DNA of 64,000 nucleotides, taken from positions 1 to 64,000 of the forward strand of contig JAIUPD010000001.1 of assembly GCA_020161615.1 (NCBI GenBank). The letters run 5' to 3'. Below, one piece after another: positions 23,078 through 48,820 of this stretch. Numbering within the stretch: position 1 is the stretch's first letter; each line of letters begins with the position of its first letter. The position numbers and the translations under genes were made by a program. Source of the DNA: Pseudomonadota bacterium. GTDB lineage: Bacteria; Pseudomonadota; Alphaproteobacteria; Rhodobacterales; Rhodobacteraceae. Under the pieces are notes generated by a model. The model did not search any database and was not told the DNA's origin. It saw only the letters and a program-made list of their open reading frames with translations.

Positions 23078-24433
23078 TCAGAGCGCGCGGAAACCGGCGT
23101 CGAGGGCGGAGAGGATCACCTGCGCGTCGGCCGAGGTCAGGACCAGCGGCGGGGAGAGGATGATGTTCGCGCCCGAGACGCGGACCATTGCCCCCGCCTG
23201 GTAGGCGGCGGTCTGGATCTTGCCCGCCACCGCCTTGTCGGGCGCGGCCTTGGTCGCGCGGTCCGAGACCAGCTCCAGCGCCAGCATCAGACCGTGCCCG
23301 CCCCGCACATCGCCGATCACCTCGTATGTCTCCTGCAGCGCCTTCAGCCCGGCGTAAAGTTCCTGCCCCCGCGCGGCGGCATTCTCGGCCACGTTCAGGC
23401 GCCGGGTCTCGGCCAGGCACGCCAGCGCGGCGGCGGCGCCGACCGGGTGGCCGGAATAGGTATAGCCATGGCCGATGGCGGCGCGGCCGGTCTCGTCCTT
23501 CTCGAAGACCTCGGCCACGTGGTCGGCGATCATCACCGCGCCGAAGGGGAAGTACCCGTTGGTGATGGCCTTGGCGGTGGCCATGAAATCGGGCTTCACC
23601 CCCCAGAGGCGCGAGCCGGACCAGGCGCCGGTGCGGCCGAAGGCGGTGATGACCTCGTCGGCAATGAGCAGGATGCCGTTCCGCCGGCAGATATCGGCCA
23701 CGCCGGGCATGAAGCTCTCATGCGGCGGGATCACGCCCCCCGCACCGAGGATCGGCTCCATGATGAAGGCGGCGATGGTGGCGGCGCCCTGGAAGGCGAT
23801 CTCGTCCTCGAGTTCCGCCAGGATCAGCTGCGCCAGCCGTGCCGGGTCGGTTTCGTTGAACGGGTTGCGATAGGGATAGGGGGCGGTGATGTGGTAGCAG
23901 CCGGGCAGCAGCGGCTCGTACATGGTGCGGAAATTGGCATTGCCATTGACCGAGGCGCCGCCGAAATGCGTCCCGTGATAGCCCTTCTTCAGGGACAGGA
24001 ATTTCACCCGCCCGGGCTCGCCCTTGATCTTGTGGTACTGGCGGGCGAGGCGCAGCGCGGTCTCCACGCTGTCGCCGCCGCCTGAGGTGTAGAAGGCGCG
24101 GCTCAGCCCGTCGGGCGCGAAGAAATCCTTCAGCTCCTCGGCCAGTTCGATGACCTTGTCGTTCGAGGTGCCGCGGAAGATCGAGTAATAGGGCAGGGTA
24201 TCGAGCTGCGCGGAAATCGCGTCCTTCACCGGCTGGCAGGAATAGCCGAGGTTGACGTTCCACAGGCCGCCCACGCCGTCCACGACCTGATGGCCGTCGA
24301 TGTCGGTGATCCTGACGCCCTCGGCCGCGGTGACGATGGTCGGCGGGTTCTTGTGGTGATCGGCCGGATGGGTCATCGGATGCCACAGGTGGCGCGCGTT
24401 GTTGGCCTTGAGGAAATTCTCGTCCTTGGGCAT
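23078..24433 (-). CDS. Class III aminotransferase (omega-amino acid:pyruvate type)
   Basis: A 451-aa PLP enzyme. NNARHLWHPMTHPADHHKNPP is the N-terminal stretch of the omega-transaminase group. SGGGDSVETALRLARQYHK binds PLP phosphate, LIADEVITAFGRTG contains the PLP-binding Asp, and FMATAKAITNGYFPFGAV holds the Schiff-base lysine at residue 288. Likely reaction: moving a terminal amino group to pyruvate; the substrate is not determinable. It follows the IclR gene, whose stop codon overlaps the AGGAG ribosome site of this gene, so they form an operon divergent from the transporter locus. Confidence 0.9.
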   Translation of the reverse strand: MPKDENFLKANNARHLWHPMTHPADHHKNPPTIVTAAEGVRITDIDGHQVVDGVGGLWNVNLGYSCQPVKDAISAQLDTLPYYSIFRGTSNDKVIELAEELKDFFAPDGLSRAFYTSGGGDSVETALRLARQYHKIKGEPGRVKFLSLKKGYHGTHFGGASVNGNANFRTMYEPLLPGCYHITAPYPYRNPFNETDPARLAQLILAELEDEIAFQGAATIAAFIMEPILGAGGVIPPHESFMPGVADICRRNGILLIADEVITAFGRTGAWSGSRLWGVKPDFMATAKAITNGYFPFGAVMIADHVAEVFEKDETGRAAIGHGYTYSGHPVGAAAALACLAETRRLNVAENAAARGQELYAGLKALQETYEVIGDVRGGHGLMLALELVSDRATKAAPDKAVAGKIQTAAYQAGAMVRVSGANIILSPPLVLTSADAQVILSALDAGFRAL

Positions 24434-24442
24434 CGGAAGCTC

Positions 24443-25213
24443 CTAATAGATGATGCGGTGATGGGCGGGAACCCGGCCGCCCAGACCCCGCGTCGCCTCG
24501 GCGGCGGCGGGGGCGAGGGCGGCGAGGATGCCGCGTTCATGGGGCTCGCTCACGCGCGAGGCGGGGGTGGCCACGGCCAGCGCCCCGCAGGCGAAACCGT
24601 CCGGGCCGAAGAGCGGCACGGCCAGGCCATAGACTTCGTCCTCGTAGGTCTGGTCGGCGACGGCAAAGCCGCGCGCGGCGGTGCGGGTCAGCATCGCGGC
24701 AAGGCTGTCGCGGGTCACGGGCGTGGTGCCGGTGATCGCGGACAGCTTGCGCCCCAGCACCCGGTCGCGCTGTTCGGGCCGGGCGAAGGCGGTGAAGGCG
24801 AGGCCCGAGGCGGTGGCATGGAGCGGCAGGGCCAGTCCCGGCTCGATATAGACGCGGTTGGCGCGGGTGGGCTCGACCACGCCGATATTGGCCAGATCCC
24901 GCCCCGACAACAGCGAGGCATGCGCGGTCTCGCCCGTGTCGCCCGCCAGCCGCTCCAGAATCGGGGTCAGCACGCGGGTGACCGGTTGCGCCGCCTCGCG
25001 CAGGCGGGCGAGGCGCAGGATTCCGGCGCCCAGACGCCAGCGCCGGTTCTCGGGGTTCTGCTCGACAAAGCCGCTTTCCGCCATGTCCTGCAGCATTCTG
25101 AGAACCGTCGCCTTGTCGATTCCCGAGAGCCGCGCGAGGTCGGACAGGCCGATCTCCGTCACCTTGTCGGTGAAGAAGTCCAGCAGTTTCAACGCTTTCT
25201 CGACTGTTCTCAT
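24443..25213 (-). CDS. IclR family transcriptional regulator
   Basis: A 256-aa regulator. The winged helix is at residues 1-65 (TVEKALKLLDFF, LSDLARLSGIDKATVLRMLQDMAESGFV), with an effector-binding IclR domain after it (GETAHASLLSGRDLANIG, ALPLHATASGLAFTAF, VADQTYEDEVYGLAVPLFG). ATG 25213 gives the normal family start; an in-frame ATG at 25246 adds 11 residues. It is transcribed away from tctC across a 129-bp gap and is the natural candidate to sense the catabolic substrate of this locus. Confidence 0.9.
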   Translation of the reverse strand: MRTVEKALKLLDFFTDKVTEIGLSDLARLSGIDKATVLRMLQDMAESGFVEQNPENRRWRLGAGILRLARLREAAQPVTRVLTPILERLAGDTGETAHASLLSGRDLANIGVVEPTRANRVYIEPGLALPLHATASGLAFTAFARPEQRDRVLGRKLSAITGTTPVTRDSLAAMLTRTAARGFAVADQTYEDEVYGLAVPLFGPDGFACGALAVATPASRVSEPHERGILAALAPAAAEATRGLGGRVPAHHRIIY

Positions 25214-25342: not shown

Positions 25343-26281
25343 ATGAAAATGCGCGTTTCCCTTGCCCTTGCGGCAGTTCTGGCGGTGCAAGCCGGTGCGG
25401 CGCTTGCCGAGTATCCCGAGGGTCCGGTGACCTTCCTGGTGCCCTGGCCGCCCGGGGATCTGGAGGACGTGCTGACCCGCATGATCGCCGAGGATTTCCA
25501 GGCGGCCTATGGCCAGCCCGCGGCGGTGCTGAACCGGCCCGGCGGTGGCGGCGGTCCCTTCCCGGGCGCGGTCGAAGTCGCGACCTCGTCCGCCGACGGC
25601 TCGGTCATCGGCTCCTTCGTGATCGGTGTGCCGGTGGTGGGTCCGCAGATCGGCATTCCCGAGCTGAACCCGAACCCCTTCACCCCGGTCGGGATCTTCC
25701 TCACCTATCCCTTCGTGCTGGCGACCTCGGGCGATGCCGAGTTCCAGACCATGCAGGAACTGGCGGCCTATGCGCAGGATAACGAGGTGCTGCTGGGCCA
25801 TTTCGGCGCCCAGCTGACGCCGACGCAGGTCAGCTTCGCCCTGGCGCATGAGATGGGTTTCGCCTGGGGCGCCGATGCCGCCTATGATGCGCTCGATTGC
25901 AACACGCTGGCCTCGGGCGACGTGGATGTGATCAACACCACCATCCAGCTGATCATGCCCTGCCTCGAGGATGTGACGATCCTGGCCGCGGTCACCGGCG
26001 AGCGTCTCCCGCTGGCGCCCGACGCGCCCACCGTGGGCGAACTCGCGCCCGATCTGGCAATCTCGCTCTGGAACGGGCTTTTCGTCCCGAACGGCACCCC
26101 GCAGGAGGTGATCGACCGCATCGCCGAGGTGGCACAAGCGACCATCGCCAGCGAGCGCGCCCAGACCTTCGCCGCCGAGACCGGGGCGCAGATCTATTGG
26201 CAGGACACCGCCGCCGCCACCGCCCAGATCGACGGTGATATCGCCACCATGGGGCGGATCGCCGAGATCACCGGCCAGTGA
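25343..26281 (+). CDS. Tripartite tricarboxylate transporter substrate-binding protein (TctC-like)
   Basis: A 312-aa periplasmic binding protein with signal peptide MKMRVSLALAAVLAVQAGAALA. YPEGPVTFLVPWPPGDLEDVLTRMIAEDFQ and AVLNRPGGGGGPFPGAVEVATSSADG match the Bug/TctC family, and SLWNGLFVPNGTPQEVIDRIAEV is the typical C-terminal motif. It captures a small anionic or zwitterionic solute for TctAB. It carries two cysteines (DALDCNTL and IMPCLED) that may pair. Ribosome site AAGGAGG. A terminator-like hairpin follows its stop, suggesting it is made in excess over TctAB. Confidence 0.9.
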   Translation: MKMRVSLALAAVLAVQAGAALAEYPEGPVTFLVPWPPGDLEDVLTRMIAEDFQAAYGQPAAVLNRPGGGGGPFPGAVEVATSSADGSVIGSFVIGVPVVGPQIGIPELNPNPFTPVGIFLTYPFVLATSGDAEFQTMQELAAYAQDNEVLLGHFGAQLTPTQVSFALAHEMGFAWGADAAYDALDCNTLASGDVDVINTTIQLIMPCLEDVTILAAVTGERLPLAPDAPTVGELAPDLAISLWNGLFVPNGTPQEVIDRIAEVAQATIASERAQTFAAETGAQIYWQDTAAATAQIDGDIATMGRIAEITGQ

Positions 26282-26287
26282 CCCGAT

Positions 26288-26316
26288 GGCCCCGGCGCAA
26301 TCCGCCGGGGCCTTTT
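26288..26316 (+). terminator. Stem-loop with T-run between tctC and tctB
   Basis: GGCCCCGGCG (26288-26297), loop CAATC, CGCCGGGGCC (26303-26312), then TTTT. The 10-bp stem is perfect. The T-run is short, so partial read-through into tctB is expected. Confidence 0.7.
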
Positions 26317-26330
26317 CCTGCGAGGGGCCC

Positions 26331-26882
26331 ATGAGCGACGACAACGCGCACGACCTGTCCGACCTGACCCATCCGCCGCACCATCGCGCCGAAATCGTCT
26401 TTGCCGTGGCCTCGTTCCTGGTGGCGCTGCTGCTGGCCGCGCTCTGGTCGACCGAGACGCGATGGATCGACGGCCAGCCCTGGAGCCGCCAGCCCGGCCT
26501 CTGGCCGCTGATCGCCGTGGTGGGGATGCTGGTTTTCGGCGCGGGCGAATTGATCGCCTGCCTGATCCGCAACCTGCGCCGGGGCGGGGGCGATGTGGCG
26601 GCCGAACTGGGGCTCTGGCTCAGGGCCGGGGAATACGTCCTTTGGTTCATGGCCTATGTGCTGATCACGCCGCGGCTGGGCTATCTGCCGACGACGCTGG
26701 TCTTCACCACGCTTCTTGCGTTCCGGCTGGGCTATCGCGGCCACGTTCTGGCGCTGGCACCGCTGATGGGCCTGTTGATCGTCGTCGCCTTCAAGGCCTT
26801 TCTGGCCGTGCGTATCCCAGGGGGCGCGGTCTATGACCTGCTGCCGCAGGGCCTGCGCAACTTCCTTGTCCTCTATCTCTGA
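26331..26882 (+). CDS. Tripartite tricarboxylate transporter small membrane subunit (TctB-like)
   Basis: A 183-aa protein with about four membrane helices (AEIVFAVASFLVALLLAALW, PLIAVVGMLVFGAGELIACL, YVLWFMAYVLITPRLGYLPTTLVFTTLLAFRLG, LAPLMGLLIVVAFKAFL). LGYLPTTLVFTTLLAFRLGYR is typical of TctB. ATG 26331 follows GAGGGGCCC and the hairpin, which rules out the in-frame upstream start at 26235 inside tctC. It works with TctA as the membrane part of a cation-driven importer. Confidence 0.88.
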   Translation: MSDDNAHDLSDLTHPPHHRAEIVFAVASFLVALLLAALWSTETRWIDGQPWSRQPGLWPLIAVVGMLVFGAGELIACLIRNLRRGGGDVAAELGLWLRAGEYVLWFMAYVLITPRLGYLPTTLVFTTLLAFRLGYRGHVLALAPLMGLLIVVAFKAFLAVRIPGGAVYDLLPQGLRNFLVLYL

Positions 26883-26894
26883 GGGGCTTCCGCC

Positions 26895-28391
26895 TTGGAT
26901 ACTTTCCTCTCTGCGCTGACCATCGTCTCGCGCTGGGACGTGATCGCGGCGCTGATCGCGGGGTCGGTCGGCGGCGTCATCATCGGCGCCATCCCGGGCG
27001 TCGGCCCGGCCGTCGCCATCGCCATCCTCCTGCCCGCGACCTTCGGCATGGAGCCGATCGTCGGCCTGACGCTGCTGCTGGGTATCTACGGATCGGCGCT
27101 GTTCGGCGGCTCGATCCCGTCGATCCTGATCAACACCCCCGGCACGCCGGTCAATGCGCTGACCACCTATGACGGCTTCCCGATGACCAAGCAGGGGCAG
27201 GCGCCGCGCGCGCTGGGCCTGAGCTTCGGCGCGTCCTTCTTCGGCGGGATCTTCGCGGTCATCGCCCTGGTGTTGCTGTCGCCGGTGCTGGCCCGGGTCG
27301 CGCCGATGTTCGGCTCGCGCGAGATCTTCCTCGCGGCCTTCCTGGGCTGCGTGCTGGTGGTCGTGGCGCATCGCGGGCAATCGCTGGCGGCGGGCGCGCT
27401 GTTGATGTTCGGCCTTTTCCTGAACACGATCGGGATGGAGGCCAACAATTACACCCGCCGCTTCACCCTCGACCTCAACTTCCTCGATCAGGGGGTCAAT
27501 CTGATCGTCGTGGTGCTGGGCCTCTTCGCCGTGTCACAGGCCTTTGTCCTGCTGGCCGGCAAGGACGACATGGAGGCCGCGCCCGACATCAAGGGCAATG
27601 TCCTGGGCGGCGTGCTGGAGGTCTTCCGCCACAAGCGGGTCGCCACGGCGGGGTCCCTGTCGGGGACGATCATGGGGATCATCCCGGGGGTGGGCGAATT
27701 CACCTCGCAATTCCTCAGCTATTCCTACGCGCGGGCCACGTCGAAGGCCCCGGGGCTTTTCGGCAAGGGCAGCCCGGAGGGGCTGGTCGCCTCCGAATCC
27801 GCGAACAATTCCGTCCCGCCCGCCGCCATGGTGCCGCTGCTGGCGCTGGGTATCCCGGGCGAGGCGCTGACGGCGATGATGCTGTCCGTTTTCTACGTCC
27901 ATAACGTCATCCCCGGTCCAACGCTGTTCCGCGACCATATGGATTTCGTGATGGCGCTCTATATCTGCCTGGCGCTGCTGAACATCCTGGCGCTGGCCTT
28001 CCTGCTGGTGGCGACCCGGCCCCTGCTGCGGGTGCTGGTGATCCCGAACCGGTTCCTGGGCATGATGATCCTGACGCTCAGCTTCGTCGGGATCTATTCG
28101 CTCAGGAATTCGGCCATCGACTGCATGCTGGCGGCGGCGTTCGGGCTGTTGGGCGTGGTGCTGAAGCGGCTGAACCTGCCGTTGGTGCCGATCATCCTGG
28201 GCATGGTGCTGGGCGGGATCATGGAAGAGAAGTTCCGCACCTCGCTTCCCCGCATCCGCTCGCTTTACAACTGGATCGACCGGCCGGTGGCGATGGTCAT
28301 CTTCTGTCTCATCTGTATCGTATTGGCGCTGCACCTCTGGGGGCTGTGGCGGGACTGGAAAGGAAAACGCGATGGATCAGTCGAGCATTGA
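26895..28391 (+). CDS. Tripartite tricarboxylate transporter large permease (TctA-like)
   Basis: A 498-aa permease with about 12 helices. Two family signatures are clear: GSVGGVIIGAIPGVGPAVAIAILLP with LFGGSIPSILINTPGTP, and GTIMGIIPGVGEFTSQFLSY with VPLLALGIPGEALTAMML. Start is TTG 26895, 12 bp after the tctB stop with GAGG upstream. Its last 20 bp overlap the aldehyde dehydrogenase gene, showing operon structure. Confidence 0.92.
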   Translation: MDTFLSALTIVSRWDVIAALIAGSVGGVIIGAIPGVGPAVAIAILLPATFGMEPIVGLTLLLGIYGSALFGGSIPSILINTPGTPVNALTTYDGFPMTKQGQAPRALGLSFGASFFGGIFAVIALVLLSPVLARVAPMFGSREIFLAAFLGCVLVVVAHRGQSLAAGALLMFGLFLNTIGMEANNYTRRFTLDLNFLDQGVNLIVVVLGLFAVSQAFVLLAGKDDMEAAPDIKGNVLGGVLEVFRHKRVATAGSLSGTIMGIIPGVGEFTSQFLSYSYARATSKAPGLFGKGSPEGLVASESANNSVPPAAMVPLLALGIPGEALTAMMLSVFYVHNVIPGPTLFRDHMDFVMALYICLALLNILALAFLLVATRPLLRVLVIPNRFLGMMILTLSFVGIYSLRNSAIDCMLAAAFGLLGVVLKRLNLPLVPIILGMVLGGIMEEKFRTSLPRIRSLYNWIDRPVAMVIFCLICIVLALHLWGLWRDWKGKRDGSVEH

Positions 28392-29856
28392 CGCGCTGGC
28401 GGCGCAAAAGGTTGCGCCGCAAGGCCTGTTCATCGGGGGGCAGCGCATCGCGGCGACGGGCGGCGCGGTGATGGAGGTCACCTCGCCCATCGACGGGCGC
28501 AGGCTGACCGAGATCGCCGATGCCTCGGCCGCCGATGTGGACGCGGCGGTGCGGGCGGCGCGGCGGGCCTATGCCTCGGGCGTGTGGTCCCGCGCGGCGC
28601 CGGCCGAGCGCAAGAAGGTCCTGTTCCGCATCGCCGAGGCCATCGAGCGCGAGGCGCTGTCGCTGGCCGTCCTGGGCGTGAGGGACAACGGCACCGAGAT
28701 TTCCATGGCGCTCAAGGCCGAACCGGGCAGCGCCGCCGGTACCTTCCGCTATTACGCCGAGGCGCTGGACAAGATCGGCGGCGAGATCGCGCCCACGGCG
28801 GGGAACGTGCTGGGCCTTGTCCATCGTGAGCCGGTGGGCGTGGTCGGCGCCATCGTGCCCTGGAACTTCCCGCTGATGATCGGCGCCTGGAAGATCGCGC
28901 CGGCTTTGGCGATGGGCAATTCGGTGGTGCTGAAACCCTCGGAAGTGGCCTCGCTGACCCTGCTGCGGCTGGCCGAGATCTGCGCGGAGTGCGGCTTGCC
29001 CGAAGGGGTGCTGAACGTCGTCACCGGCGCGGGGGCTGTCTCGGGCGAGGCGCTGGGCCTGCACCCCGATGTGGATGTGCTGGTCTTCACCGGCTCGGGC
29101 GGCGTCGGCCGCAGGCTTCTGGAATACAGCGCCCGCTCGAACCTCAAGCGGGTTTATCTCGAACTCGGCGGCAAATCCCCGAACGTGGTCTTTGCCGATG
29201 CACCGGACCTGCGCCAGGCGGCGAGGGTCAGCGCGGCAGGGATCTTCCGCAACTCGGGTCAGGTCTGCGTCGCGGGCTCGCGCATCCTCGTCGAACGCTC
29301 GGTGCATGAGGAATTCGCGGCGATGCTGGCCGAGGAAGCCCGGGCCATGAAGATCGGCAACCCTCTGAAGCTGGATACGCAGGCCGGGGCCATCGCCTCG
29401 GAAGCGCAACTCGCCCGGGTCCAGCATTACGTCGAGAAGGCGCATGAGGAAGGCGGCGCGCTGCGCACCGGCGGCGAACGGATCCTGACCGAGACCGGCG
29501 GCAGCTATTACGCGCCCACGGTCTTTGACAACGTGACCCCGGAGATGACGCTGGCCCGGGAAGAGGTCTTCGGTCCCGTCGCGGCGGTAACCCCCTTCGG
29601 TACCGAGGACGAGGCGGTGCGCATGGCCAATGGCACCGATTTCGGCCTCGCTTCGGCCGTATGGACCGGCAACCTCAGCCGCGCGCATCGCATGGTGCGG
29701 GCCATCGACGCGGGCGTGGTCCACGTCAACACCTATGGCGGTGCGGACAATACCGTGCCGCTGGGCGGGCATCGCCAATCCGGCAACGGGCATGACAAGT
29801 CCCTGCACGCGCTGGAGAAATATGTGAACCTCAAGACCGCCTGGATCCAGCTGTGA
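28372..29856 (+). CDS. NAD(P)-dependent aldehyde dehydrogenase
   Basis: A 494-aa ALDH-superfamily enzyme. PVGVVGAIVPWNFPLMIGAWKIAPALAMGNSVVLKPSE is the cofactor-binding part; the catalytic general base is Glu264 (LELGGKSPN) and the nucleophile Cys299 (NSGQVCVAGSR). EEVFGPVAAVTPF and the terminal GHDKSLHALEKYVNLKTAWIQL resemble gamma-glutamyl-gamma-aminobutyraldehyde and betaine aldehyde dehydrogenase relatives. In this operon it most likely oxidises the aldehyde released by the next enzyme. It overlaps tctA by 20 bp and the next gene by 4 bp. Confidence 0.92.
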   Translation: MDQSSIDALAAQKVAPQGLFIGGQRIAATGGAVMEVTSPIDGRRLTEIADASAADVDAAVRAARRAYASGVWSRAAPAERKKVLFRIAEAIEREALSLAVLGVRDNGTEISMALKAEPGSAAGTFRYYAEALDKIGGEIAPTAGNVLGLVHREPVGVVGAIVPWNFPLMIGAWKIAPALAMGNSVVLKPSEVASLTLLRLAEICAECGLPEGVLNVVTGAGAVSGEALGLHPDVDVLVFTGSGGVGRRLLEYSARSNLKRVYLELGGKSPNVVFADAPDLRQAARVSAAGIFRNSGQVCVAGSRILVERSVHEEFAAMLAEEARAMKIGNPLKLDTQAGAIASEAQLARVQHYVEKAHEEGGALRTGGERILTETGGSYYAPTVFDNVTPEMTLAREEVFGPVAAVTPFGTEDEAVRMANGTDFGLASAVWTGNLSRAHRMVRAIDAGVVHVNTYGGADNTVPLGGHRQSGNGHDKSLHALEKYVNLKTAWIQL

Positions 29857-31139
29857 CCGAAAGCCTGATCGAACGCCGCGCCCGCCTGCTGGGCCCCAAC
29901 ATGAGCACCTTCTACGACGAACCCGTGCATCTGGTGCGCGGGCAGGGGGTGCATCTGTGGGATTCCGAGGGGCGGCAATACCTCGATTGCTACAACAACG
30001 TGCCGCATGTCGGGCATTGCCATCCCAAGGTGGTCGAGGCGATCTGCCAGCAGGCCGGGACGCTGAACACGCACACGCGCTATCTGCACGAGGGGATTCT
30101 GGATTACGTCGAGGCGCTGGTCGCGACCTTCGACGCGTCCTTCGACACGGCGCTGATGTGCTGCACCGGGTCCGAGGCGAATGATGTGGCGCTGCGCATG
30201 GCGCAGGCGCTGACCGGCAAGACCGGGGTGATTGCCACCGACCACACCTATCACGGCAACACGACCGCCGTGCACCAGCTCAGCCAGACCAACCCGCCGC
30301 CCGGTGGCTATTGGGACTCGGTCCGCTTCGTCCCGGCGCCGGACAGCTACCGGCCGCTCGGCGGTGTCCCGGGCATGGCCCATGCCCAGGCCTTCGCCGC
30401 CAAGGTGCAGGAGCAGATCGACGCCTTGGAGGCCGCGGGGCATGGCTTCTCCTCGCTGATCCTCTGCCCCTTCTTCGCCAATGAGGGCTTCCCCGACCTG
30501 CCGCAGGGCTGGCTCGACCCGGTGCAGGCGGTCGTCCGCAAGGCTGGGGGTGTCATCATCGCCGACGAGGTGCAGCCGGGCTTCGGCCGGGTCGGGACGC
30601 ATTTCTGGGGGCACCAGAAGATCGGCCTCAAGCCCGACATCGTGACCATGGGCAAGCCGATGGCCAACGGCCACCCGGTCGCCGCCGTGGTCGCGCCCGC
30701 GGCCACGATGAAGGCCTTCCGTGAGCGATTCCGCTATTTCAACACCTTCGGCGGCAACCCGGTCAGCGCCGCTGCCGCGCTCGCCACCCTGCGCGTCGTG
30801 CAGGAGGAGGGGTTGCAGGAAAACGCCCGCCTGGTCGGCGAGTATGCCCGTGACGGGCTGCGGGAGCTTGCCACGCGGCATGAGTGCATTGGCGATGTGC
30901 GGGGCTCGGGCCTGTTCTTCGGGGCCGAGATGGTGCTCGACCGGGGCACCAAGGAACCCGCCACCGCCTTCACCAAACGCGTCGCCAACGCGATGCGGCA
31001 GCAGGGCATCCTGCTGAATTTCCTCGGCATTCATTACAACGTGCTGAAGATCCGCCCGCCGCTGCCCTTCTCGCGCGACAATGCCGACCAGCTGATCGAG
31101 ACGCTGGACCGGGTGCTGGCCGAGACGCCGCTGGCATGA
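29853..31139 (+). CDS. PLP-dependent phospholyase of the AGXT2L/ETNPPL type (class III aminotransferase fold)
   Basis: A 428-aa class III aminotransferase-fold protein. YLDCYNNVPHVGHCHPKVVEAI and the Schiff-base region TMGKPMANGHPVAAVV (Lys268) match the human AGXT2L subgroup, which removes phosphate and ammonia from phosphoethanolamine or 5-phosphohydroxylysine rather than transaminating. IIADEVQPGFGRVGTHFWGHQ supplies the PLP Asp. The GTG start at 29853 overlaps the ALDH stop, and its stop overlaps the kinase start as ATGA. A following APH-type kinase is the known companion of such lyases. A transaminase role cannot be excluded. Confidence 0.82.
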   Translation: MTESLIERRARLLGPNMSTFYDEPVHLVRGQGVHLWDSEGRQYLDCYNNVPHVGHCHPKVVEAICQQAGTLNTHTRYLHEGILDYVEALVATFDASFDTALMCCTGSEANDVALRMAQALTGKTGVIATDHTYHGNTTAVHQLSQTNPPPGGYWDSVRFVPAPDSYRPLGGVPGMAHAQAFAAKVQEQIDALEAAGHGFSSLILCPFFANEGFPDLPQGWLDPVQAVVRKAGGVIIADEVQPGFGRVGTHFWGHQKIGLKPDIVTMGKPMANGHPVAAVVAPAATMKAFRERFRYFNTFGGNPVSAAAALATLRVVQEEGLQENARLVGEYARDGLRELATRHECIGDVRGSGLFFGAEMVLDRGTKEPATAFTKRVANAMRQQGILLNFLGIHYNVLKIRPPLPFSRDNADQLIETLDRVLAETPLA

Positions 31140-32080
31140 GCGGCCCCGCCCAACAAGCTGCCGCCCTCTGGGGGCTGAACCCGGCACAGGTCACTCTGGT
31201 TGCCAGGCGCGAGAACGAGGTCTGGCGCGCCGAGGGGCCGGGCGGGCCCTATGCGCTCCGCCTGCACCGCCCCGGCTACCGCACGCAAGCCGAGCTGCAA
31301 TCGGAACTCGACTGGATGGCGATGCTGGCCGCGGGCGGGCTGACCGTCCCGCGCCCGACCCCCTCGCGGTCCGGGCGGCTGGTCGAGGTCATCGGCGATA
31401 CGGCCGTCGATCTGCTGACCTGGATGCCCGGCCGGATGGTCGGCGCCCAGGGCGCGCTGGACGGGATCGCCGACCGCGAGGGGCATATGCGCCGCCTCGG
31501 CGCGCTGCTGGCCCGGCTGCATGACCTCTCCGACGCCTGGACGCCGCCCGAGGGCTTCACACGCCCGCGCTGGGACCGGCCCGGGCTGCTGGGTCAGGCG
31601 CCGCTCTGGGGGCCGTTCTGGGAGAACCCCGACCTGACCCAGACCCAGCGCGAGACCCTGCTGCGAGTGCAGGCGACGGCCGACCGCGACCTTGCGGCGC
31701 GGGAGGCCGGGCTGGATTACGGCCTGATCCACGCCGATGCGATCACCGAGAATGTCATGGTCGATGGCGACAGGCTGGTGCTGATCGATTTCGACGATGG
31801 CGGCTGGGGGTTTCGGGATTTCGACCTCGCCACTGTGCTAATGCGCCAGCTTTCCGCGCCCGATTACCCCGCGCTGAGGGCCGCCCTGCTGGAAGGCTAC
31901 GCCTCCCGCCGCCCGGTCGATCCGCAGGCGCTGGACCTGCTGCTGCTGTGCCGGGCGCTGACCTATCTGGGCTGGATCATCCCGCGACGCGGCGAACCGG
32001 GGGGCGAGGAACGCTCGCGCCGGGCCGTCGCCACGGCGATGCCGCTGGCCGAAACCTATCTGGAGGAGAAACATGGCTGA
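31136..32080 (+). CDS. APH-fold small-molecule kinase (homoserine/hydroxylysine kinase-like)
   Basis: A 314-aa phosphotransferase of the APH/choline-kinase family. ALRLHRPGYRTQAELQSELDWMAML gives the N-lobe with the Lys/Glu region. GLIHADAITENVMVDGDRLVLIDFDDGGWGFRDFDLA contains the catalytic HxDxxxxN and the metal-binding Asp of IDFDD. Fusions or neighbours of this family with AGXT2L-like lyases phosphorylate amino alcohols before elimination. It starts within the preceding stop (ATGA) and overlaps the next gene by 8 bp. Confidence 0.82.
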   Translation: MSGPAQQAAALWGLNPAQVTLVARRENEVWRAEGPGGPYALRLHRPGYRTQAELQSELDWMAMLAAGGLTVPRPTPSRSGRLVEVIGDTAVDLLTWMPGRMVGAQGALDGIADREGHMRRLGALLARLHDLSDAWTPPEGFTRPRWDRPGLLGQAPLWGPFWENPDLTQTQRETLLRVQATADRDLAAREAGLDYGLIHADAITENVMVDGDRLVLIDFDDGGWGFRDFDLATVLMRQLSAPDYPALRAALLEGYASRRPVDPQALDLLLLCRALTYLGWIIPRRGEPGGEERSRRAVATAMPLAETYLEEKHG

Positions 32081-33308
32081 CCGCACCATCCTGATCGTTG
32101 GCACCTATGACACCAAGCAGGACGAGCTGGGCTATCTGGCGCAGGTGATCCGGGCGCAGGGCGGCGGCGTGCTGACCATGGATGTGAGCGTGCTGGGCGA
32201 TCCCGCCCTGCCCACCGATTACTCCAAGCATCAGGTGGCCGAGGCCGGCGGATCCTCCATCGCCGAGGCCATCGCCGGCGAGGACGAGAACCTCGCCATG
32301 CAGATCATGGCCCGGGGCTCGGCGGCGCTGGCCAAGCGCTTGCAGGCCGAGGGGGCCTTTGACGGGGTGATCGTGCTGGGCGGCTCGATGGGGACCGATC
32401 TGGCGCTCGACCTCTGCGCGGCGCTGCCCCTGGGGGTGCCGAAATACATCGTCTCGACGGTCAGCTTCTCGCCGATGATCCCGACCGAGCGGTTGGCGGC
32501 GGATGTGCAGATGATCCTCTGGGCCGGCGGACTCTATGGGCTGAACTCGGTCTGCAAGGCGTCCCTGTCCCAAGCCGCGGGCGCCGTGCTGGGCGCGGCG
32601 CGGGCGGTGGAGAAGCCGGTCAGGGACCGGCCGCTGATTGGCATGACCTCCTTCGGCAAGACCGTGCTCAGGTACATGGTGACGCTGAAACCGGCGCTGG
32701 AGGCGCGGGGCTACGAGGTCGCGGTATTCCACGCCACCGGCATGGGTGGCCGGGCCTTCGAAGCGCTGGCCGCCGAGGGCGCTTTCGCCGCGGTCCTCGA
32801 TTTCGCCCCGCAGGAGGTGGCGAACCATCTGCACGGTTCGGCCATCTCGGCGGGACCGGACCGGCTGACGGCTGCGGGCAGGGCAGGCGTGCCGCAACTG
32901 GTGTCCATCGGCTGCTATGACCTGATCGACCTGGTGGGCTGGCACGACCGGCCCGAGGCCCTGCGCGACCGCCCGGCCCATGCCCACAACCGGCTCATCA
33001 CCTCTGTCGTCATGACGGCCGAGGAGCGGCGGGGCATGGCCAAGGCGCTGTGCGACCGGCTGGCCCAGGCCAAGGGGCCGGTCGTCTTCCTGCTGCCCCT
33101 CAAAGGCGGCAACGAATGGGACCGCGAGGGCGGGCCGCTGAGCGATCCCGAGGCGCTGGCGGCCTTCATCGACGCCATGCGCGCCGAATGCCCGGGCAAT
33201 GTCACGCTGGTGGAACTCGACGCGCATATCAACGACCCGGAATTTTCCGAGGCCGCCTTGCAGGTGGTCGATGGCTGGATCGCGGCGGGGCTGCTGCCCG
33301 CCGCTTAA
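32073..33308 (+). CDS. Tm-1-like ATP-binding domain protein (UPF0261)
   Basis: A 411-aa protein of the UPF0261/Tm-1-like family, named for the tomato virus-resistance protein. RTILIVGTYDTKQDELGYLAQVIRAQG is the N-terminal nucleotide-binding lobe; VIVLGGSMGTDLAL and PLIGMTSFGKTVLRYM, VAVFHATGMGGRAFEALAAEGAF continue the family pattern; VVFLLPLKGGNEWDREGGPL is near the end. Bacterial function is unknown. It is the last gene of the transporter-kinase-lyase operon; its TAA overlaps the stop of convergent hisD. Confidence 0.88.
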   Translation: MADRTILIVGTYDTKQDELGYLAQVIRAQGGGVLTMDVSVLGDPALPTDYSKHQVAEAGGSSIAEAIAGEDENLAMQIMARGSAALAKRLQAEGAFDGVIVLGGSMGTDLALDLCAALPLGVPKYIVSTVSFSPMIPTERLAADVQMILWAGGLYGLNSVCKASLSQAAGAVLGAARAVEKPVRDRPLIGMTSFGKTVLRYMVTLKPALEARGYEVAVFHATGMGGRAFEALAAEGAFAAVLDFAPQEVANHLHGSAISAGPDRLTAAGRAGVPQLVSIGCYDLIDLVGWHDRPEALRDRPAHAHNRLITSVVMTAEERRGMAKALCDRLAQAKGPVVFLLPLKGGNEWDREGGPLSDPEALAAFIDAMRAECPGNVTLVELDAHINDPEFSEAALQVVDGWIAAGLLPAA

Positions 33309-34606: not shown

Positions 34607-34625
34607 GGCGTTCTCCTGCGTCATG

Positions 34626-43230: not shown

Positions 43231-44037
43231 TCACCCCTGCGCGAAGGTTGTGCGAACGCGGCCGAAACTGCCGAAGTCGGCATCGAAAACGCTGCCCGGC
43301 GGCGCTTCGACCGGCCGGATGAACGAGCCCGAGAGAACCACCTCGCCCGCCGCCAGCCCCTGCCCGTACCGCGCGAGTCGCTCGACCAGCCAGACGATGC
43401 CGGTGACCGGATCGTCCAGCACTCCGGCGCCGAGGCCGGTTTCCTCGACCACCCCGTCGCGCTTGAGGATGGCACCCGCCCAGCGCAGGTCCAGCGCGTC
43501 CGGCGCGTGGCGCTGGGCGCCCAGCACGATGCCCGCATTCGCCGCATTGTCGCTGATCGTGTCGGTGACGACCCGCGGCTTGCCGCTGGCGGGGTCCGCG
43601 CGCAGGATGCGGGTATCGAGGATCTCGAGCGCGGGCGCCACGGCCTCGGTCGCGGCCAGCACCTGCGCGCGGGTGATGCCCTCACCCCGAAGCGGCGATT
43701 TCAGCAGAAAAGCGATCTCGGCCTCGATCCGGGGCTGGATGAAGCGCCCGGCGGGGATTTCGGCGCCGTCCTCGAACAGCATGTCGTCGAACAGGACGCC
43801 CGAATCCGGCGTGTCGATCTTCAGCGCATCCTGCATGGCGCGGCTGGTCAGGCCGATCTTCCAGCCGATCACCCGCCGCCCGGCGGCCTTCTTGCGCTGA
43901 ACGAGCGCGGCCTGCACGGCATAGGCATCGTCCAACGTCATCCCGGGATGGGCGAGCGACAGAAGGCCGATCTGCCGCCCCGTCGCTTCGGCCTGAAAGA
44001 GCGCCTCGGCGGCGGCCTCGTGGTCTTGCGGTGTCAT
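43231..44037 (-). CDS. hpaH: 2-oxo-hept-3-ene-1,7-dioate hydratase
   Basis: A 268-aa hydratase of the homoprotocatechuate pathway, adding water to the dienoate before aldol cleavage. AYAVQAALVQRKKAAGRRVIGWKIGLTSRAMQDALKIDTPDSGVLFDDML and RIEAEIAFLLKSPLRGEGIT, with ISDNAANAGIVLG and a C-terminal SGSFIRPVEAPPGSVFDADFGSFG, place it with HpaH/MhpD-type enzymes. It overlaps hpaG by 4 bp. It is the last hpa gene before the unrelated ECF operon; the HpaI aldolase that normally follows is not here. Confidence 0.93.
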   Translation of the reverse strand: MTPQDHEAAAEALFQAEATGRQIGLLSLAHPGMTLDDAYAVQAALVQRKKAAGRRVIGWKIGLTSRAMQDALKIDTPDSGVLFDDMLFEDGAEIPAGRFIQPRIEAEIAFLLKSPLRGEGITRAQVLAATEAVAPALEILDTRILRADPASGKPRVVTDTISDNAANAGIVLGAQRHAPDALDLRWAGAILKRDGVVEETGLGAGVLDDPVTGIVWLVERLARYGQGLAAGEVVLSGSFIRPVEAPPGSVFDADFGSFGRVRTTFAQG

Positions 44038-44894
44038 TCGTCGGCCACCCCGTTCCTGAGGATGCCGATGCCCTCGACCTCCACCTCGACCACATCGCCC
44101 GGCACCAGGTATTTCGGCGGATCGAATCGCGCGCCCGCCCCGGTCGGCGTGCCGGTGACGATGATGTCGCCGGGGGCCAGGGTGGTGAAGGTCGAGATAT
44201 AGGCGATCTCTTCGCGGATGGGGAACATCATGCGCGCCAGCACATCGTCCTGCCGCACCTCGCCATTGACCCGGGTGACGATCCGCGCCTGATCCAGCTG
44301 CGCCGGATCCTCGAACGCCACCATCCAGGGCCCGATGGCGCCCGAGCGGTCCCAGTTCTTGCCCTGCGTCACGTTGAATTTCGCATGCCGCACCCAGTCG
44401 CGGATCGTGCCCTCGTTGCAGAGCGTGAGCCCGGCGATATGGTCATAGGCGTCCTCGGCCCGGATCCGCCGACCGCCCTTGCCGATCACCACCGCCACCT
44501 CGCCCTCGTAATCGAGCGTCTGGTTCTCGGGCGGGCGGATCAGCGGCTGGCCGTGGCCGGTGAAAGAGCGGGCGAAGCGGGGGAAGAGCGACATGTACTT
44601 CGGCTGCGCCGTGCCATCCTTGTATTCGGCGTTCCGGTCGGGAAAGTTCACGCCGACGCAGAGGATCTTCTCCGCATCGGGCACCGGGATTGAAAAAGTG
44701 AAACTCCCCTCGGGATGCGTCACCGCCCGCCCCTCGGCCGCCCGGGCCAGATCGCCCAGCCCCCCGGCAGCGATGACCGCCCTCAGCGTCGGCCAATGCG
44801 GGAAGTCATCCGACAGCGCGATGACGCCGCCCTCCACGACCACGCCGTAAACTTGCCGCCCCCCGGCCTCGATGGTCGCGAACCGTGTTTTCAT
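44034..44894 (-). CDS. hpaG: FAH-family isomerase/decarboxylase of homoprotocatechuate degradation
   Basis: A 286-aa fumarylacetoacetate hydrolase-fold enzyme, expected to decarboxylate and isomerise 5-oxopent-3-ene-1,2,5-tricarboxylate. ILCVGVNFPDRNAEY, PPENQTLDYEGEVAVVIG (metal-binding Glu residues), GLTLCNEGTIRDWVRHAKFNVTQGKNWDRSGAIGPWMV and LAPGDIIVTGTPTGAGARFDPPKYLVPGDVVEVEVEGIG are family motifs. E. coli HpaG is a two-domain fusion, whereas this is a single domain, so a homodimer is likely. Assignment to this step rests on neighbours. Confidence 0.85.
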   Translation of the reverse strand: MKTRFATIEAGGRQVYGVVVEGGVIALSDDFPHWPTLRAVIAAGGLGDLARAAEGRAVTHPEGSFTFSIPVPDAEKILCVGVNFPDRNAEYKDGTAQPKYMSLFPRFARSFTGHGQPLIRPPENQTLDYEGEVAVVIGKGGRRIRAEDAYDHIAGLTLCNEGTIRDWVRHAKFNVTQGKNWDRSGAIGPWMVAFEDPAQLDQARIVTRVNGEVRQDDVLARMMFPIREEIAYISTFTTLAPGDIIVTGTPTGAGARFDPPKYLVPGDVVEVEVEGIGILRNGVADE

Positions 44895-44987: not shown

Positions 44988-45968
44988 TCACGGGGCGATG
45001 ATCGGCTGCGCCGTCAACAGCGACTCCACCATCTCCGCCCCCTCGAACACCGACCCTTCCTCGAACCAGGATTTCGGCGCCGGCGCGCCCCAGAGGGTCT
45101 GGCGCTGCGGGTCCTTCAGGTCCCAGCGGATCGGCTCCAGATCGGGATCGACCGTCTGGTAATCCGAGCAATAGATCTCGATCCGGTGCCCGTCCGGGTC
45201 GCGGATATAGAGGAAGAAGGCGTTGGAAATCCCGTGCCGCCCCGGCCCGCGCTCGATATTCGCGACATAGCCGGTGGTCGCCATCAGATCGAGCAGGTCG
45301 ATGATGTTCAGCGGTGTCGGCACCCAGAAGGCGGTGTGATGTAGCCGCGGCCCGCGACCATTGGTGAAGGCCACGTCATGGACACCGCCCTTGCGGTGCA
45401 TCCAGGCGGCCCAGCAGCGGCCGCTTTCCGCATCCTCGGTATATTCCGTCACCCGGAAGCCGATCGAATTATAGAAGGCGACCGAGGCATCCACGTCCGA
45501 GGCGAACATGTTGAAATGGTCGATGCGGAGCGGCTTCACCCCCCGGTAAAGCGCGTATTTCTGGTGGATTGGCGCCAGCCGCTCCATCCGCGCGTAGAAT
45601 TCGAGCGGGATCCCGAACGGGTCCCGGGTACGGAAGGCGCGGGCGATGAAGGAGCTGTCCACCCACTCGACCGGCAGGCCCTGACGGGTGAACCAGGCGG
45701 CGGCCTTGTCGAGTTCCCCCTCGTCGAAGACCTTGAACCCCAGCACCCCCACCGAGGGCGCCTCCGCCTCGACCAGCGTCACGCAATGATGCCCGCGCTC
45801 CTCCATCGCCCGCAGATAGAGGCGCCCGGGTTCCTCGCCCGTGATCTGCAGACCCAGCGTGTCCACCCAGAAGGCGCGCGAGCGGGCGAGGTCGGTCACC
45901 CGGTATTCGACATGCGAAAGCCGCAGGATGTTGAAGGGCGGGTAAAGGGTCGGCGCGGGAATCGGCAT
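44988..45968 (-). CDS. VOC-family extradiol 3,4-dihydroxyphenylacetate 2,3-dioxygenase
   Basis: A 326-aa type I (vicinal oxygen chelate) extradiol dioxygenase. It has two repeated glyoxalase-like modules: ILRLSHVEYRVTDLARSRAFWVDTLGLQI and PLRIDHFNMFASDVDASVAFYNSIGFRVTEYTED. The iron ligands fit the His of RIDHFN, the His of LHHTAFWV and the Glu of GHRIEIYCSDY. Relatives are the Arthrobacter and Brevibacterium homoprotocatechuate dioxygenases. It lies next to an unrelated HpaD (class III) proposed for the same reaction. Confidence 0.85.
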   Translation of the reverse strand: MPIPAPTLYPPFNILRLSHVEYRVTDLARSRAFWVDTLGLQITGEEPGRLYLRAMEERGHHCVTLVEAEAPSVGVLGFKVFDEGELDKAAAWFTRQGLPVEWVDSSFIARAFRTRDPFGIPLEFYARMERLAPIHQKYALYRGVKPLRIDHFNMFASDVDASVAFYNSIGFRVTEYTEDAESGRCWAAWMHRKGGVHDVAFTNGRGPRLHHTAFWVPTPLNIIDLLDLMATTGYVANIERGPGRHGISNAFFLYIRDPDGHRIEIYCSDYQTVDPDLEPIRWDLKDPQRQTLWGAPAPKSWFEEGSVFEGAEMVESLLTAQPIIAP

Positions 45969-45992: not shown

Positions 45993-46020
45993 GTAGGAGG
46001 GGCAACATTGCCCATCCTAC
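45993..46020. repeat. Dispersed palindrome (copy 2), supplying the hpaD stop codon
   Basis: This 28-bp element differs from the copies at 19094 and 59034 at two positions (gtaggagggg... and ...caacattg). Its right end TCCTAC provides the TAG stop (46017-46019, minus strand) of the class III hpaD gene. Confidence 0.75.
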
Positions 46021-46868
46021 AGGGGGAATATCACGTTGACCTGCCCGGTCCCGGACGAGGGGAAATAGGGCGTCACCACCTCGCATTTGCCGGTATAGGC
46101 GTCCCAGCCCAAGGCACCGTAAAGCATGGCGGTGTCGTGCATCGAGCCCTCGCCCGAACAATGCTGCGCGTAATCGCCCAGCATCTTCAGGAAGGTGGCG
46201 TGATCGCCGCGCTGCCACATCTCCAGCACCATCAGATCCACCTGCCGGTTGAACTCGCTGGAGATGGTGAAGGTGCCGTTGTTCGGCGCATACTCCTTGT
46301 TCGACCAGATCCTGTGGCTGAGCGAGCCCGAGGCGACCAGCAGCACCCGGCTGTCCGAGGCCTCGATCGCCTTGCGGATCGCCGCGCCCAGCACCCGGCT
46401 TTCATCGTGCCCGTGCACGGTGCAGAAGGCGGCGACGCTCACCACCTTCATGTCATGGACACGGCTCATGAAGCTCATCGGCACCAGCGTGCCATATTCC
46501 AGGTCCAGCGAGTCCAGGTGATGGGCCAGCGTATAGACCCCCATCTCGGTGGCCGTCTCGGCGATCAGATCGCCCAGCGCCGGGTTCCCGCGATGGGAAT
46601 ACGGCATGTCGCGGATGAATTGCGGGAACTCGCTGGAGGTCAGCAGCCCCTCGAAGCGGTCGTTGGCATTCACATGGAAGCCCGCGTTCACCAGCCAATG
46701 CGTGTCGCAGATCACCACGGTGTCGACGCCCAGCGCCTTGGCCCGGCGGGCGATCTCCAGATGGCCGTCGATGGCGGGCTGGCGCGTGCCCTTGAGGCGC
46801 CCCTCCTGTTCCGACATCTGCAGCGTCGGCACATGCGTCATCTTGGCGGCGAGAAGCAGCTCTCCCAT
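46017..46868 (-). CDS. hpaD: Class III extradiol homoprotocatechuate 2,3-dioxygenase (LigB superfamily)
   Basis: A 283-aa enzyme of exactly the E. coli HpaD length. AAKMTHVPTLQMSEQEG, TVVICDTHWLVNAGFHVNAND, YSHRGNPALGDLIAE, LAHHLDSLDLEYGTLVPM and VASGSLSHRIW are class III signatures with metal-binding histidines and glutamate. It opens the ring of 3,4-dihydroxyphenylacetate to 5-carboxymethyl-2-hydroxymuconic semialdehyde. ATG 46868 has GAGGGAGGGATC before it, and longer frames to 46961 overlap hpaE. It starts 12 bp after the hpaE stop. Confidence 0.92.
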   Translation of the reverse strand: MGELLLAAKMTHVPTLQMSEQEGRLKGTRQPAIDGHLEIARRAKALGVDTVVICDTHWLVNAGFHVNANDRFEGLLTSSEFPQFIRDMPYSHRGNPALGDLIAETATEMGVYTLAHHLDSLDLEYGTLVPMSFMSRVHDMKVVSVAAFCTVHGHDESRVLGAAIRKAIEASDSRVLLVASGSLSHRIWSNKEYAPNNGTFTISSEFNRQVDLMVLEMWQRGDHATFLKMLGDYAQHCSGEGSMHDTAMLYGALGWDAYTGKCEVVTPYFPSSGTGQVNVIFPL

Positions 46869-46879
46869 GATCCCCTCCC

Positions 46880-48384
<1,505 letters not shown>

Positions 48385-48388
<4 letters not shown>

Positions 48389-48798: not shown

Positions 48799-48820
48799 GA
48801 TACTTGCTTTGTTAAGTGAT
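48799..48820. promoter_or_regulatory. Candidate HpaR operator in the hpaF-hpaR gap
   Basis: GATACTTGCTTTGTTAAGTGAT contains an imperfect dyad (ATACTT and AAGTGAT) in an otherwise GC-rich gap. The inner word CTTGCTTTGT (48803-48812) is repeated exactly at 48901-48910, near the hpaR start. Both suit MarR-type autoregulation of the divergent promoters. Confidence 0.45.

What the first reader, a model, noticed from the sequence alone, without database searches (positions are those of the whole stretch)
25343..33308. Uncharacterised kinase-phospholyase-dehydrogenase pathway fed by a TTT transporter
The operon encodes, in order, TctC, TctB, TctA, an aldehyde dehydrogenase, an AGXT2L-type PLP phospholyase with the GKPMANGHP lysine motif, an APH-fold kinase and a Tm-1-like protein. 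The enzymes fit a route in which an amino alcohol is imported, phosphorylated, stripped of phosphate and ammonia to an aldehyde, then oxidised. Hydroxylysine and ethanolamine routes are the known analogues; the substrate here is open. An IclR regulator and an omega-transaminase are divergent.
Basis: partly seen in the sequence, partly recalled or inferred. Interest (0 to 1): 0.75.

Follow-up and report, generated by a model that had tools for sequence, protein, structure and literature searches.

The report
Arylethanolamine breakdown cassette using phosphorylation
This gene cluster most likely lets marine and soil bacteria eat adrenaline-type and octopamine-type amines by adding a phosphate, knocking it out together with ammonia, and feeding the product into a known aromatic-ring pathway; the substrate is inferred from gene neighbours in many genomes and has not been tested in the laboratory.

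Summary
In detail: TctC-TctB-TctA-ALDH-lyase-kinase-UPF0261 form a tight operon with a divergent IclR and omega-transaminase. The PLP enzyme groups with phospholyases (A1RDF1, human ETNPPL), not transaminases. The substrate can be narrowed. The window carries a homoprotocatechuate (hpa) operon 10 kb away. Lyase and kinase share a same-strand run with hpa genes in at least three settings (L043, L154, Rhizobium). HpaF is present in 26 of 28 genomes of the lyase's clade against 7 of 18 of its sister clade; it is present in 78 of 90 genomes with the cassette's UPF0261 against 11 of 158 without. The R. binae locus adds HpaB/C; in S. fredii homogentisate genes and a folate-type N-demethylase stand in for hpa. 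Best reading: lyase and kinase are an adapter for beta-hydroxylated arylethylamines (octopamine/noradrenaline type), giving an arylacetaldehyde that the ALDH oxidises; the transaminase would serve tyramine/dopamine. Ethanolamine or hydroxylysine is now less likely. No assay exists: the substrate is inferred. This genome lacks HpaB, many cassettes have no hpa genes nearby, and the role of UPF0261 (Tm-1-like) is unknown.

The parts
23078..24433 (-). omega-transaminase (PRK07481 type), proposed to act on the non-hydroxylated amine (tyramine/dopamine type)
   Evidence: NF005683 735 bits, over cut-off; part of the conserved cassette; substrate inferred
24443..25213 (-). IclR-family regulator
   Evidence: PF01614 86 bits, PF09339 54 bits; ATG at 25213; conserved
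25343..26281 (+). TctC-type binding protein with a PPGDLED loop in place of GGxxD
   Evidence: PF03401 66 bits; PPGDxED in 52 of 52 TctC of >=50% identity in the loci held, window included, against GG in the 5 aligned PDB members shown of 11 matched
26331..26882 (+). TctB small membrane subunit
   Evidence: PF07331 38 bits; start
26895..28391 (+). TctA large membrane subunit
   Evidence: PF01970 412 bits
28372..29856 (+). aldehyde dehydrogenase (PuuC/KauB-like; proposed arylacetaldehyde dehydrogenase)
   Evidence: PF00171 537 bits; best PDB 6b4r KauB; the 25 NCBIfam models shown of 45 are all below their cut-offs
29853..31139 (+). PLP-dependent phospholyase (ETNPPL/A1RDF1 type), K268
   Evidence: best PDB by sequence 5g4i 395 bits, 6tor 346 bits, next 210 bits; same order by fold; clade tied to HpaF
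31136..32080 (+). APH-fold small-molecule kinase
   Evidence: PF01636 113 bits; best PDB 6ef6 111 bits; ATG overlaps the lyase stop
32073..33308 (+). Tm-1-like UPF0261 protein, function unknown
   Evidence: PF06792, PF23189; NF002676 over cut-off; co-occurs with HpaF and lies within 20 kb of it in 19 genomes
43231..44037 (-). HpaH, 2-oxo-hept-4-ene-1,7-dioate hydratase
   Evidence: TIGR02312 374 bits, over cut-off
44034..44894 (-). HpaG-like isomerase/decarboxylase
   Evidence: best TIGR02303 163 bits, below cut-off
44988..45968 (-). HpaD, VOC-type homoprotocatechuate 2,3-dioxygenase
   Evidence: TIGR02295 407 bits, over cut-off
46017..46961 (-). second homoprotocatechuate 2,3-dioxygenase, LigB type
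   Evidence: TIGR02298 449 bits, over cut-off; PF02900
46880..48388 (-). HpaE, CHMS dehydrogenase
   Evidence: TIGR02299 773 bits, over cut-off
48385..48780 (-). HpaF, 5-carboxymethyl-2-hydroxymuconate isomerase
   Evidence: PF02962 125 bits, 127 bits at 48412-48777; GTG start read from the frame printed
48820..49380 (+). HpaR-like MarR regulator
   Evidence: 44% identity to the R. binae protein annotated HpaR; ORF bounds

Best explanation
The cassette is a catabolic route for arylethylamines. (1) TctABC imports the amine (inferred). (2) Beta-hydroxylated amines, such as octopamine or noradrenaline and, after N-demethylation in some hosts, synephrine/adrenaline/phenylephrine-type amines, are phosphorylated on the side-chain hydroxyl by the APH-fold kinase (inferred). 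(3) The PLP phospholyase removes phosphate and ammonia, leaving (hydroxy)phenylacetaldehyde (reaction type supported by family and fold; substrate inferred). (4) The ALDH oxidises it to (hydroxy)phenylacetate (inferred). (5) The acid enters the homoprotocatechuate meta-cleavage pathway encoded 10 kb away (genes shown), or the homogentisate pathway in some relatives. The divergent transaminase would deaminate the non-hydroxylated amines (tyramine, dopamine) to the same aldehyde, which would explain why cassettes without lyase and kinase keep the rest. IclR would be the regulator.
For: Lyase: nearest PDB by sequence 5g4i phospholyase (395 bits) and 6tor ETNPPL (346), next 210 bits; same top two by fold. 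Own hpa operon at 43231-48780; HpaI elsewhere in the genome over cut-off. Same-strand runs with hpa genes: L043 lyase-kinase-HpaF-E-D-G-H; L154, another family, HpaF-E-D-G-H-I-lyase-kinase; L073 UPF0261-HpaE-D-G-lyase-kinase; Rhizobium binae, IclR, Tm-1, HAD, transaminase, lyase, kinase, HpaF-E-D, G-H-I, with HpaB/C, ALDH and APC permease upstream; an Agrobacterium plasmid alike. In L178 (Lutimaribacter) and L180 the window's own gene order is followed by HpaF-E-D-G-H with only an HpaR-like gene among the mapped genes between. Of 80 named loci, 28 have >=2 hpa genes in the stretch held. HpaF in 26 of 28 genomes of the lyase clade against 7 of 18 of the sister clade, p 1e-4. UPF0261 with strong HpaF 78 of 90 against 11 of 158, p 7e-39; 19 of those 78 within 20 kb, about 1 expected; outside the family 8 of 8 genomes with UPF0261 of >=54% identity against 5 of the other 306. 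S. fredii: homogentisate genes beside the cassette in place of hpa, with a DAO+GCV_T flavoprotein, PurU, FolD, ETF-QO. A pyridoxal-dependent (PF00282) decarboxylase lies among hpa genes in Shinella and next to HpaD in L060. An APC-type amino acid permease stands where TTT would be in some loci.
Against: No activity or growth data. In the window the hpa operon is 10 kb away on the other strand, and 30 of 80 named loci have a cassette partner but fewer than two hpa genes and no hmg or N-demethylase marker in the stretch held (some stretches are cut by contig ends). G047 (100% complete) and G181 (86%) carry the clade's lyase without HpaF. Two out-of-family genomes with UPF0261 matches of 37-39% (G371, G441) lack HpaF, and 11 in-family genomes with UPF0261 have no HpaF hit at all. 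The own genome has no HpaB, so the 3-hydroxylation needed for octopamine is not explained; catechol amines or the P450 unit would solve this, both unproven. The own PF00282 decarboxylase (61% to the Shinella one) has no other reference gene in the 20 kb around it, and its NCBIfam models are below cut-off. The ALDH gives no specific hint. UPF0261 is not explained. The co-occurrence tests are not corrected for phylogeny beyond sampling about one genome per genus.
Confidence: 0.7

Rival explanations
1. The lyase and kinase act on a small aliphatic amino alcohol (ethanolamine or 1-amino-2-propanol) and only share a locus with arylethylamine genes.
For: A solved relative is an ethanolamine-phosphate phospholyase (6tor) and the kinase's nearest solved relative is 6ef6 (recalled as M. 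smegmatis aminopropanol kinase). The sister clade of lyase-kinase pairs shows no hpa link. The lyase and kinase are absent from many otherwise complete cassettes, e.g. L099 in the window's own genus.
Against: The window's clade, and not its sister, tracks HpaF (26 of 28 against 7 of 18). Lyase-kinase lie in a same-strand run with hpa genes in L043, L154, L073 and Rhizobium. The homogentisate neighbours in S. fredii and L231 keep an arylacetate product.
Confidence: 0.15
2. 5-Hydroxylysine or another amino acid carrying a hydroxyl (GABOB, isoserine) is the substrate, imported through a carboxylate-binding TctC.
For: TctC proteins usually bind carboxylates (recalled); nearest PDB is BugD (recalled as an aspartate binder). 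Hydroxylysine is a known substrate of this enzyme pair (title of reference 31 seen in PMC8154272). A gabD-annotated gene sits in the Rhizobium and Agrobacterium loci, which would fit GABOB.
Against: gabD there lies inside the hpa genes and suits the product of HpaI (recalled: succinate semialdehyde). No lysine or aminoadipate gene was noticed among the neighbours named (not searched for as such). The TctC loop is PPGDxED in 52 of 52, unlike the PDB members shown. The hpa/hmg link would be unexplained.
Confidence: 0.07
3. The PLP enzyme is a second transaminase and the kinase serves something else.
For: Most class III enzymes are taken to be transaminases (passages of PMC8154272); annotators call it aminotransferase.
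Against: Phospholyases are the top matches by sequence and fold. The kinase overlaps it by 4 bases and a kinase of the same cluster is present in 42 of the 59 lyase-bearing stretches mapped, window included; ten others have another APH-like gene upstream (named by eye). The fused PRK06148 model covers the lyase at 519 bits and the kinase weakly at 25 bits.
Confidence: 0.05

Closest known systems
Ethanolamine-phosphate phospho-lyase ETNPPL/AGXT2L1 (6tor) and A. aurescens A1RDF1 (5g4i)
   Same: fold, PLP lysine, nearest sequence and structure matches
   Different: the gene setting points to an aryl side chain, not ethanolamine; bacterial operon with its own kinase and ALDH
1-Amino-2-propanol kinase/phospholyase route (Erwinia, Pseudomonas; mycobacterial microcompartment) - from recall
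   Same: kinase, phospholyase, aldehyde oxidation; kinase 6ef6 is the nearest solved one
   Different: no microcompartment gene was noticed among the neighbours (not searched for); product would be an arylacetaldehyde
Hydroxylysine kinase (AGPHD1) with PHYKPL/AGXT2L2 - reference title seen in PMC8154272, paper itself not held
   Same: kinase plus ammoniophospholyase logic
   Different: substrate; no lysine-pathway neighbours noticed
Homoprotocatechuate (4-hydroxyphenylacetate) meta-cleavage pathway HpaDEFGHI
   Same: the ring-cleavage genes are in the window genome (HpaG only below its cut-off)
   Different: here proposed to be fed by a kinase-phospholyase entry; no HpaB in this genome
Synephrine degradation in Arthrobacter synephrinum through 4-hydroxyphenylacetaldehyde ('synephrinase') - from recall, nothing read
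   Same: net loss of the beta-hydroxyl and the amine to an arylacetaldehyde, then homoprotocatechuate
   Different: recalled as a single enzyme without phosphorylation; its gene is not known to me

Membership tests
ETNPPL/PHYKPL-type phospholyases | fold-type I class III PLP enzyme with conserved Schiff-base lysine | tested here: met
   PF00202 247 bits; K268 invariant in 18 of 18 aligned sequences, aligned with K of 5g4i and 6tor
ETNPPL/PHYKPL-type phospholyases | closer to known phospholyases than to any solved transaminase, decarboxylase or racemase | tested here: met
   395 and 346 bits against <=210; Foldseek ranks 1-4 (model mean pLDDT 79)
ETNPPL/PHYKPL-type phospholyases | releases phosphate and ammonia from an O-phospho amine | not testable with these tools
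   needs an assay
Ethanolamine or hydroxylysine catabolism | neighbouring genes of that pathway | tested here: inconclusive
   neighbours point to arylacetate instead, but no targeted search for lysine or ethanolamine genes was made
Homoprotocatechuate pathway as outlet | HpaD, HpaE, HpaF, HpaG, HpaH, HpaI present | tested here: met
   HpaG only below its cut-off
Homoprotocatechuate pathway as outlet | 4-hydroxyphenylacetate 3-hydroxylase HpaB | tested here: not met
   PF03241 0 matches in the own genome; an HpaB N-terminal-domain gene is annotated in the R. binae locus
Tripartite tricarboxylate transporter (TTT) | TctA, TctB, TctC subunits | tested here: met
   PF01970, PF07331, PF03401 over cut-off
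Tripartite tricarboxylate transporter (TTT) | carboxylate-binding GGxxD loop of TctC | tested here: inconclusive
   GDLED instead of GG..D; ligand not tested, and that this loop binds the carboxylate is recalled

The most novel reading that the evidence does not exclude
An unreported phosphorylation-dependent pathway for phenolic and catechol ethanolamines (octopamine, noradrenaline and, with a folate N-demethylase, synephrine/adrenaline/phenylephrine types), spread among roseobacters and rhizobia and often plasmid-borne, with a TctC that has become an amine receptor and with the UPF0261 (Tm-1-like) protein as an unrecognised part of arylethylamine catabolism.
Probability: 0.35. Interest if true: 0.85.

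Novelty: new variant of a known kind. Interest (0 to 1): 0.72.

Why it matters
It would give genes to bacterial consumption of adrenaline- and octopamine-type amines, compounds that signal in animals and occur in plants, in marine and plant-associated bacteria. It would extend the kinase-phospholyase strategy from small amino alcohols to aromatic ones. It gives a testable metabolic context for UPF0261, the bacterial relative of the tomato virus-resistance protein Tm-1, and suggests that a TTT receptor can bind a cation. It can be tested in Ruegeria pomeroyi DSS-3, which carries the transaminase-ALDH-lyase-kinase-Tm-1 set on its megaplasmid.

Tried and rejected
Ethanolamine, aminopropanol and hydroxylysine readings were set against neighbourhoods and lost ground (see rivals). 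Lyase positions that differ between the window's clade and its sister (N147, Y166, W220, N379 and others) were listed but not used: no coordinates were at hand to place them in the pocket. A Phaeobacter strain difference in tyramine respiration (PMC4148982, one passage) could not be tied to the cassette: neither strain named there appeared among the rows listed from the plasmid collection (60 of 112 records, 60 of 115), and chromosomes were not searched. The beta-oxidation-like cluster beside UPF0261 in eight loci does not fit the arylacetate reading in an obvious way and is left open. Paper searches, of which I saw titles and abstract openings only, listed no paper on a phosphorylated octopamine-type route; searches found 0 papers, and one search listed 40 of 178. 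The library lacks most subscription journals.

Caveats on counts. The 27 'cassette-type' genomes were picked by eye from the maps and nearby UPF0261 positions; G034 and G124 are loose members, so the clade test is the better figure. In one search one of 30 clade rows (L139, R. pomeroyi) and one of 19 sister rows (L143) were left out because HpaF was not searched in those genomes; two clade rows share genome G104, giving 28 genomes. 'Strong' HpaF means E <= about 1e-25; 12 genomes with weaker hits only were counted as lacking it (with all hits the UPF0261 table is 79 of 90 against 22 of 158). UPF0261 of G163 and G009 is interrupted by stop codons and counted as present. The 19 close pairs were collected by eye.
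Full report
What is there. The + strand operon 25343-33308 holds TctC, TctB, TctA, an aldehyde dehydrogenase, a class III PLP enzyme, an APH-fold kinase and a UPF0261 (Tm-1-like) protein; an IclR regulator and an omega-transaminase run the other way. From TctA on, neighbouring genes overlap by 4-20 bases. The genome looks close to Pararhodobacter: the lyase is 96% identical to that of P. aggregans and 88% to P. zhoushanensis.

The PLP enzyme. Its best solved relatives are the A. aurescens phospholyase 5g4i (395 bits) and human ethanolamine-phosphate phospho-lyase 6tor (346 bits); the next, dialkylglycine decarboxylase, scores 210. An AlphaFold model (mean pLDDT 79) gives the same ranking by fold. 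The catalytic lysine K268 is invariant in 18 of 18 aligned sequences. Its overlapping kinase is nearest to 6ef6 among solved chains.

The neighbourhood that names the pathway. At 43231-48780 (-) the window carries HpaH, an HpaG-like protein, two homoprotocatechuate dioxygenases of different families, HpaE and HpaF, with an HpaR-like regulator opposite. HpaI is elsewhere in the genome, over its cut-off. These genes degrade 3,4-dihydroxyphenylacetate (established pathway).

Comparison within the family. In 248 genomes (247 genera) lyase homologues at E <= 1e-60, distant ones included, were found in 117, HpaF in 101 and the cassette's UPF0261 in 90. UPF0261 and strong HpaF coincide: 78 of 90 genomes with UPF0261 have it against 11 of 158 without (p 7e-39); for lyases judged by eye to lie in the cassette, 24 of 27 against 65 of 221; for other lyases of >=56% identity, 17 of 51 against 72 of 197, no link. 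In 19 of the 78 genomes UPF0261 and HpaF lie within 20 kb, about one being expected.

Tree. Of 71 lyases, the window's sits in a clade of 30 (SH-aLRT 95; quick tree, no bootstrap), 26 of them with cassette or hpa genes in the same stretch; the other four belong to genomes with HpaF. HpaF is present in 26 of 28 genomes of this clade against 7 of 18 of the sister clade of lyase-kinase pairs, in which 1 of 19 rows (L062) has cassette partners. The Rhizobium-type lyases (L140, L141, with L142 and L055) form a third group, also with cassette partners; their place relative to the other two is unresolved.

Outside the family. In the class sample (318 genomes, 314 outside the family), 8 of 8 genomes with UPF0261 of >=54% identity have strong HpaF against 5 of the other 306, and 4 of 4 with a lyase of >=66% against 9 of the other 310. 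Two genomes with UPF0261 matches of only 37-39% (G371, G441) have no HpaF.

Shared gene runs. L043: lyase, kinase, HpaF, HpaE, dioxygenase, HpaG, HpaH. L154, another family: HpaF-E-D-G-H-I then lyase, kinase. L073: UPF0261, HpaE, HpaD, HpaG, lyase, kinase. Rhizobium binae: HpaB and flavin reductase; ALDH and APC permease; IclR, Tm-1-like, HAD, transaminase, lyase, kinase, HpaF, HpaE, HpaD, gabD, FAH-family (HpaG), HpaH, HpaI; and HpaR. The Agrobacterium plasmid is alike from ALDH on. Shinella has the hpa genes divergent and a pyridoxal-dependent decarboxylase inside them; L060 has a PF00282 gene next to HpaD. In L178 (Lutimaribacter pacificus) and L180 the window's own gene order is followed by HpaF-E-D-G-H. 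Of 80 named loci from genome contigs, 65 have a cassette partner, 28 have two or more hpa genes in the stretch held, 30 have a partner but fewer than two hpa genes and no hmg or N-demethylase marker, and 14 have neither partner nor two hpa genes (one of them, L221, has HpaF).

Module swaps. In S. fredii NXT3 the cassette lies beside homogentisate genes (hmgA, FAH-family, maiA) and no hpa gene is annotated in the stretches read; with it come a flavoprotein of DAO+GCV_T domains (the make-up of folate-dependent N-demethylases), ETF, ETF-QO, PurU and FolD. Whether hpa lies elsewhere in that genome was not searched. In 6 of 80 named loci the same flavoprotein is present, one more (L231) has PurU with homogentisate genes, and L195 and L240 also have homogentisate genes. 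Both outlets start from a dihydroxyphenylacetate; N-demethylation suits N-methyl amines. An APC-type permease stands in place of TTT in L062, L101, L104, L107 and in rhizobia. Many cassettes lack the lyase and kinase but keep the rest, e.g. L099 from the window's own genus, so this pair looks like an adapter for beta-hydroxylated amines, the transaminase serving the others.

Transporter. 52 of 52 TctC (>=50% identity to the window's, window included, loci held) read PPGDxED where the five PDB members shown, of 11 matched, read GG..D. That this loop holds a ligand carboxylate is recalled; an acidic replacement suits a cation, but this is inference.

What does not fit or is unknown. No HpaB in the own genome. 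A P450, glutamine-synthetase-like enzyme, ferredoxin and amidotransferase unit is on contig C11; the P450 occurs in 16 of the 120 stretches tabled and in 30 of 45 chosen genomes, and is a candidate ring hydroxylation system, unproven. The own PF00282 decarboxylase is 61% identical to the Shinella one but stands apart. Two clade genomes lack HpaF. Relatives at about 50% identity on E. coli, P. aeruginosa and Azospirillum plasmids, and the Gemmobacter and Paracoccus loci, have no gene annotated hpa in the stretches read, though Azospirillum has gentisate-type genes there and the Gemmobacter plasmid has a UPF0261 and a second transaminase some 45-55 kb away. The function of UPF0261 is unknown; a 2016 study (PMC5028733, passages seen) treats its origin and co-evolution with another domain, and the passages shown name no enzyme activity.

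Verdict. A kinase-phospholyase adapter feeding arylacetate catabolism is well supported by context; beta-hydroxy-arylethylamines are the simplest substrates that the chemistry and the outlet allow. It is a new variant of a known strategy. Confidence 0.7 for the substrate class.

Noticed in passing
G000 contig C11 about 150.3-154.0 kb (L169:7364-10975): Ferredoxin, glutamine-synthetase-like gene and cytochrome P450 on one strand with a class I amidotransferase opposite; the same genes lie in the cassette's stretch in some relatives. May be a gamma-glutamyl-amine hydroxylation system.
   Followed up: partly
L042, L072, L100, L135, L138; L176: A sulfatase (PehA/arylsulfatase-like below cut-off; PF00884 shown for L042) in the cassette's stretch in several genera, possibly for sulfated phenolic amines.
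   Followed up: partly
L042, L110, L115, L116, L118, L120, L121, L123: A fatty-acid-oxidation-like cluster (FadB-type and thiolase by Pfam, the rest by eye) directly after UPF0261 in eight loci; role in this setting unknown.
   Followed up: partly
L044, L055, L074, L100, L110, L112, L140, L141: A HAD-IA hydrolase in the cassette's stretch, often next to the transaminase, recurrent in the set but without an assigned step.
   Followed up: partly
window 33305-34624 (-): Histidinol dehydrogenase gene (TIGR00069 526 bits) right after the cassette, convergent; looks unrelated.
   Followed up: no
window 44988-46961 (-): Two homoprotocatechuate 2,3-dioxygenases of different families (VOC and LigB) side by side in one hpa operon.
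   Followed up: no
L049-L053, L065, L068-L071, L075-L078, L097, L098 (sister clade): A second family of lyase-kinase pairs, often next to an ArfB-like gene (named by eye), without the hpa link; its substrate is open.
   Followed up: partly
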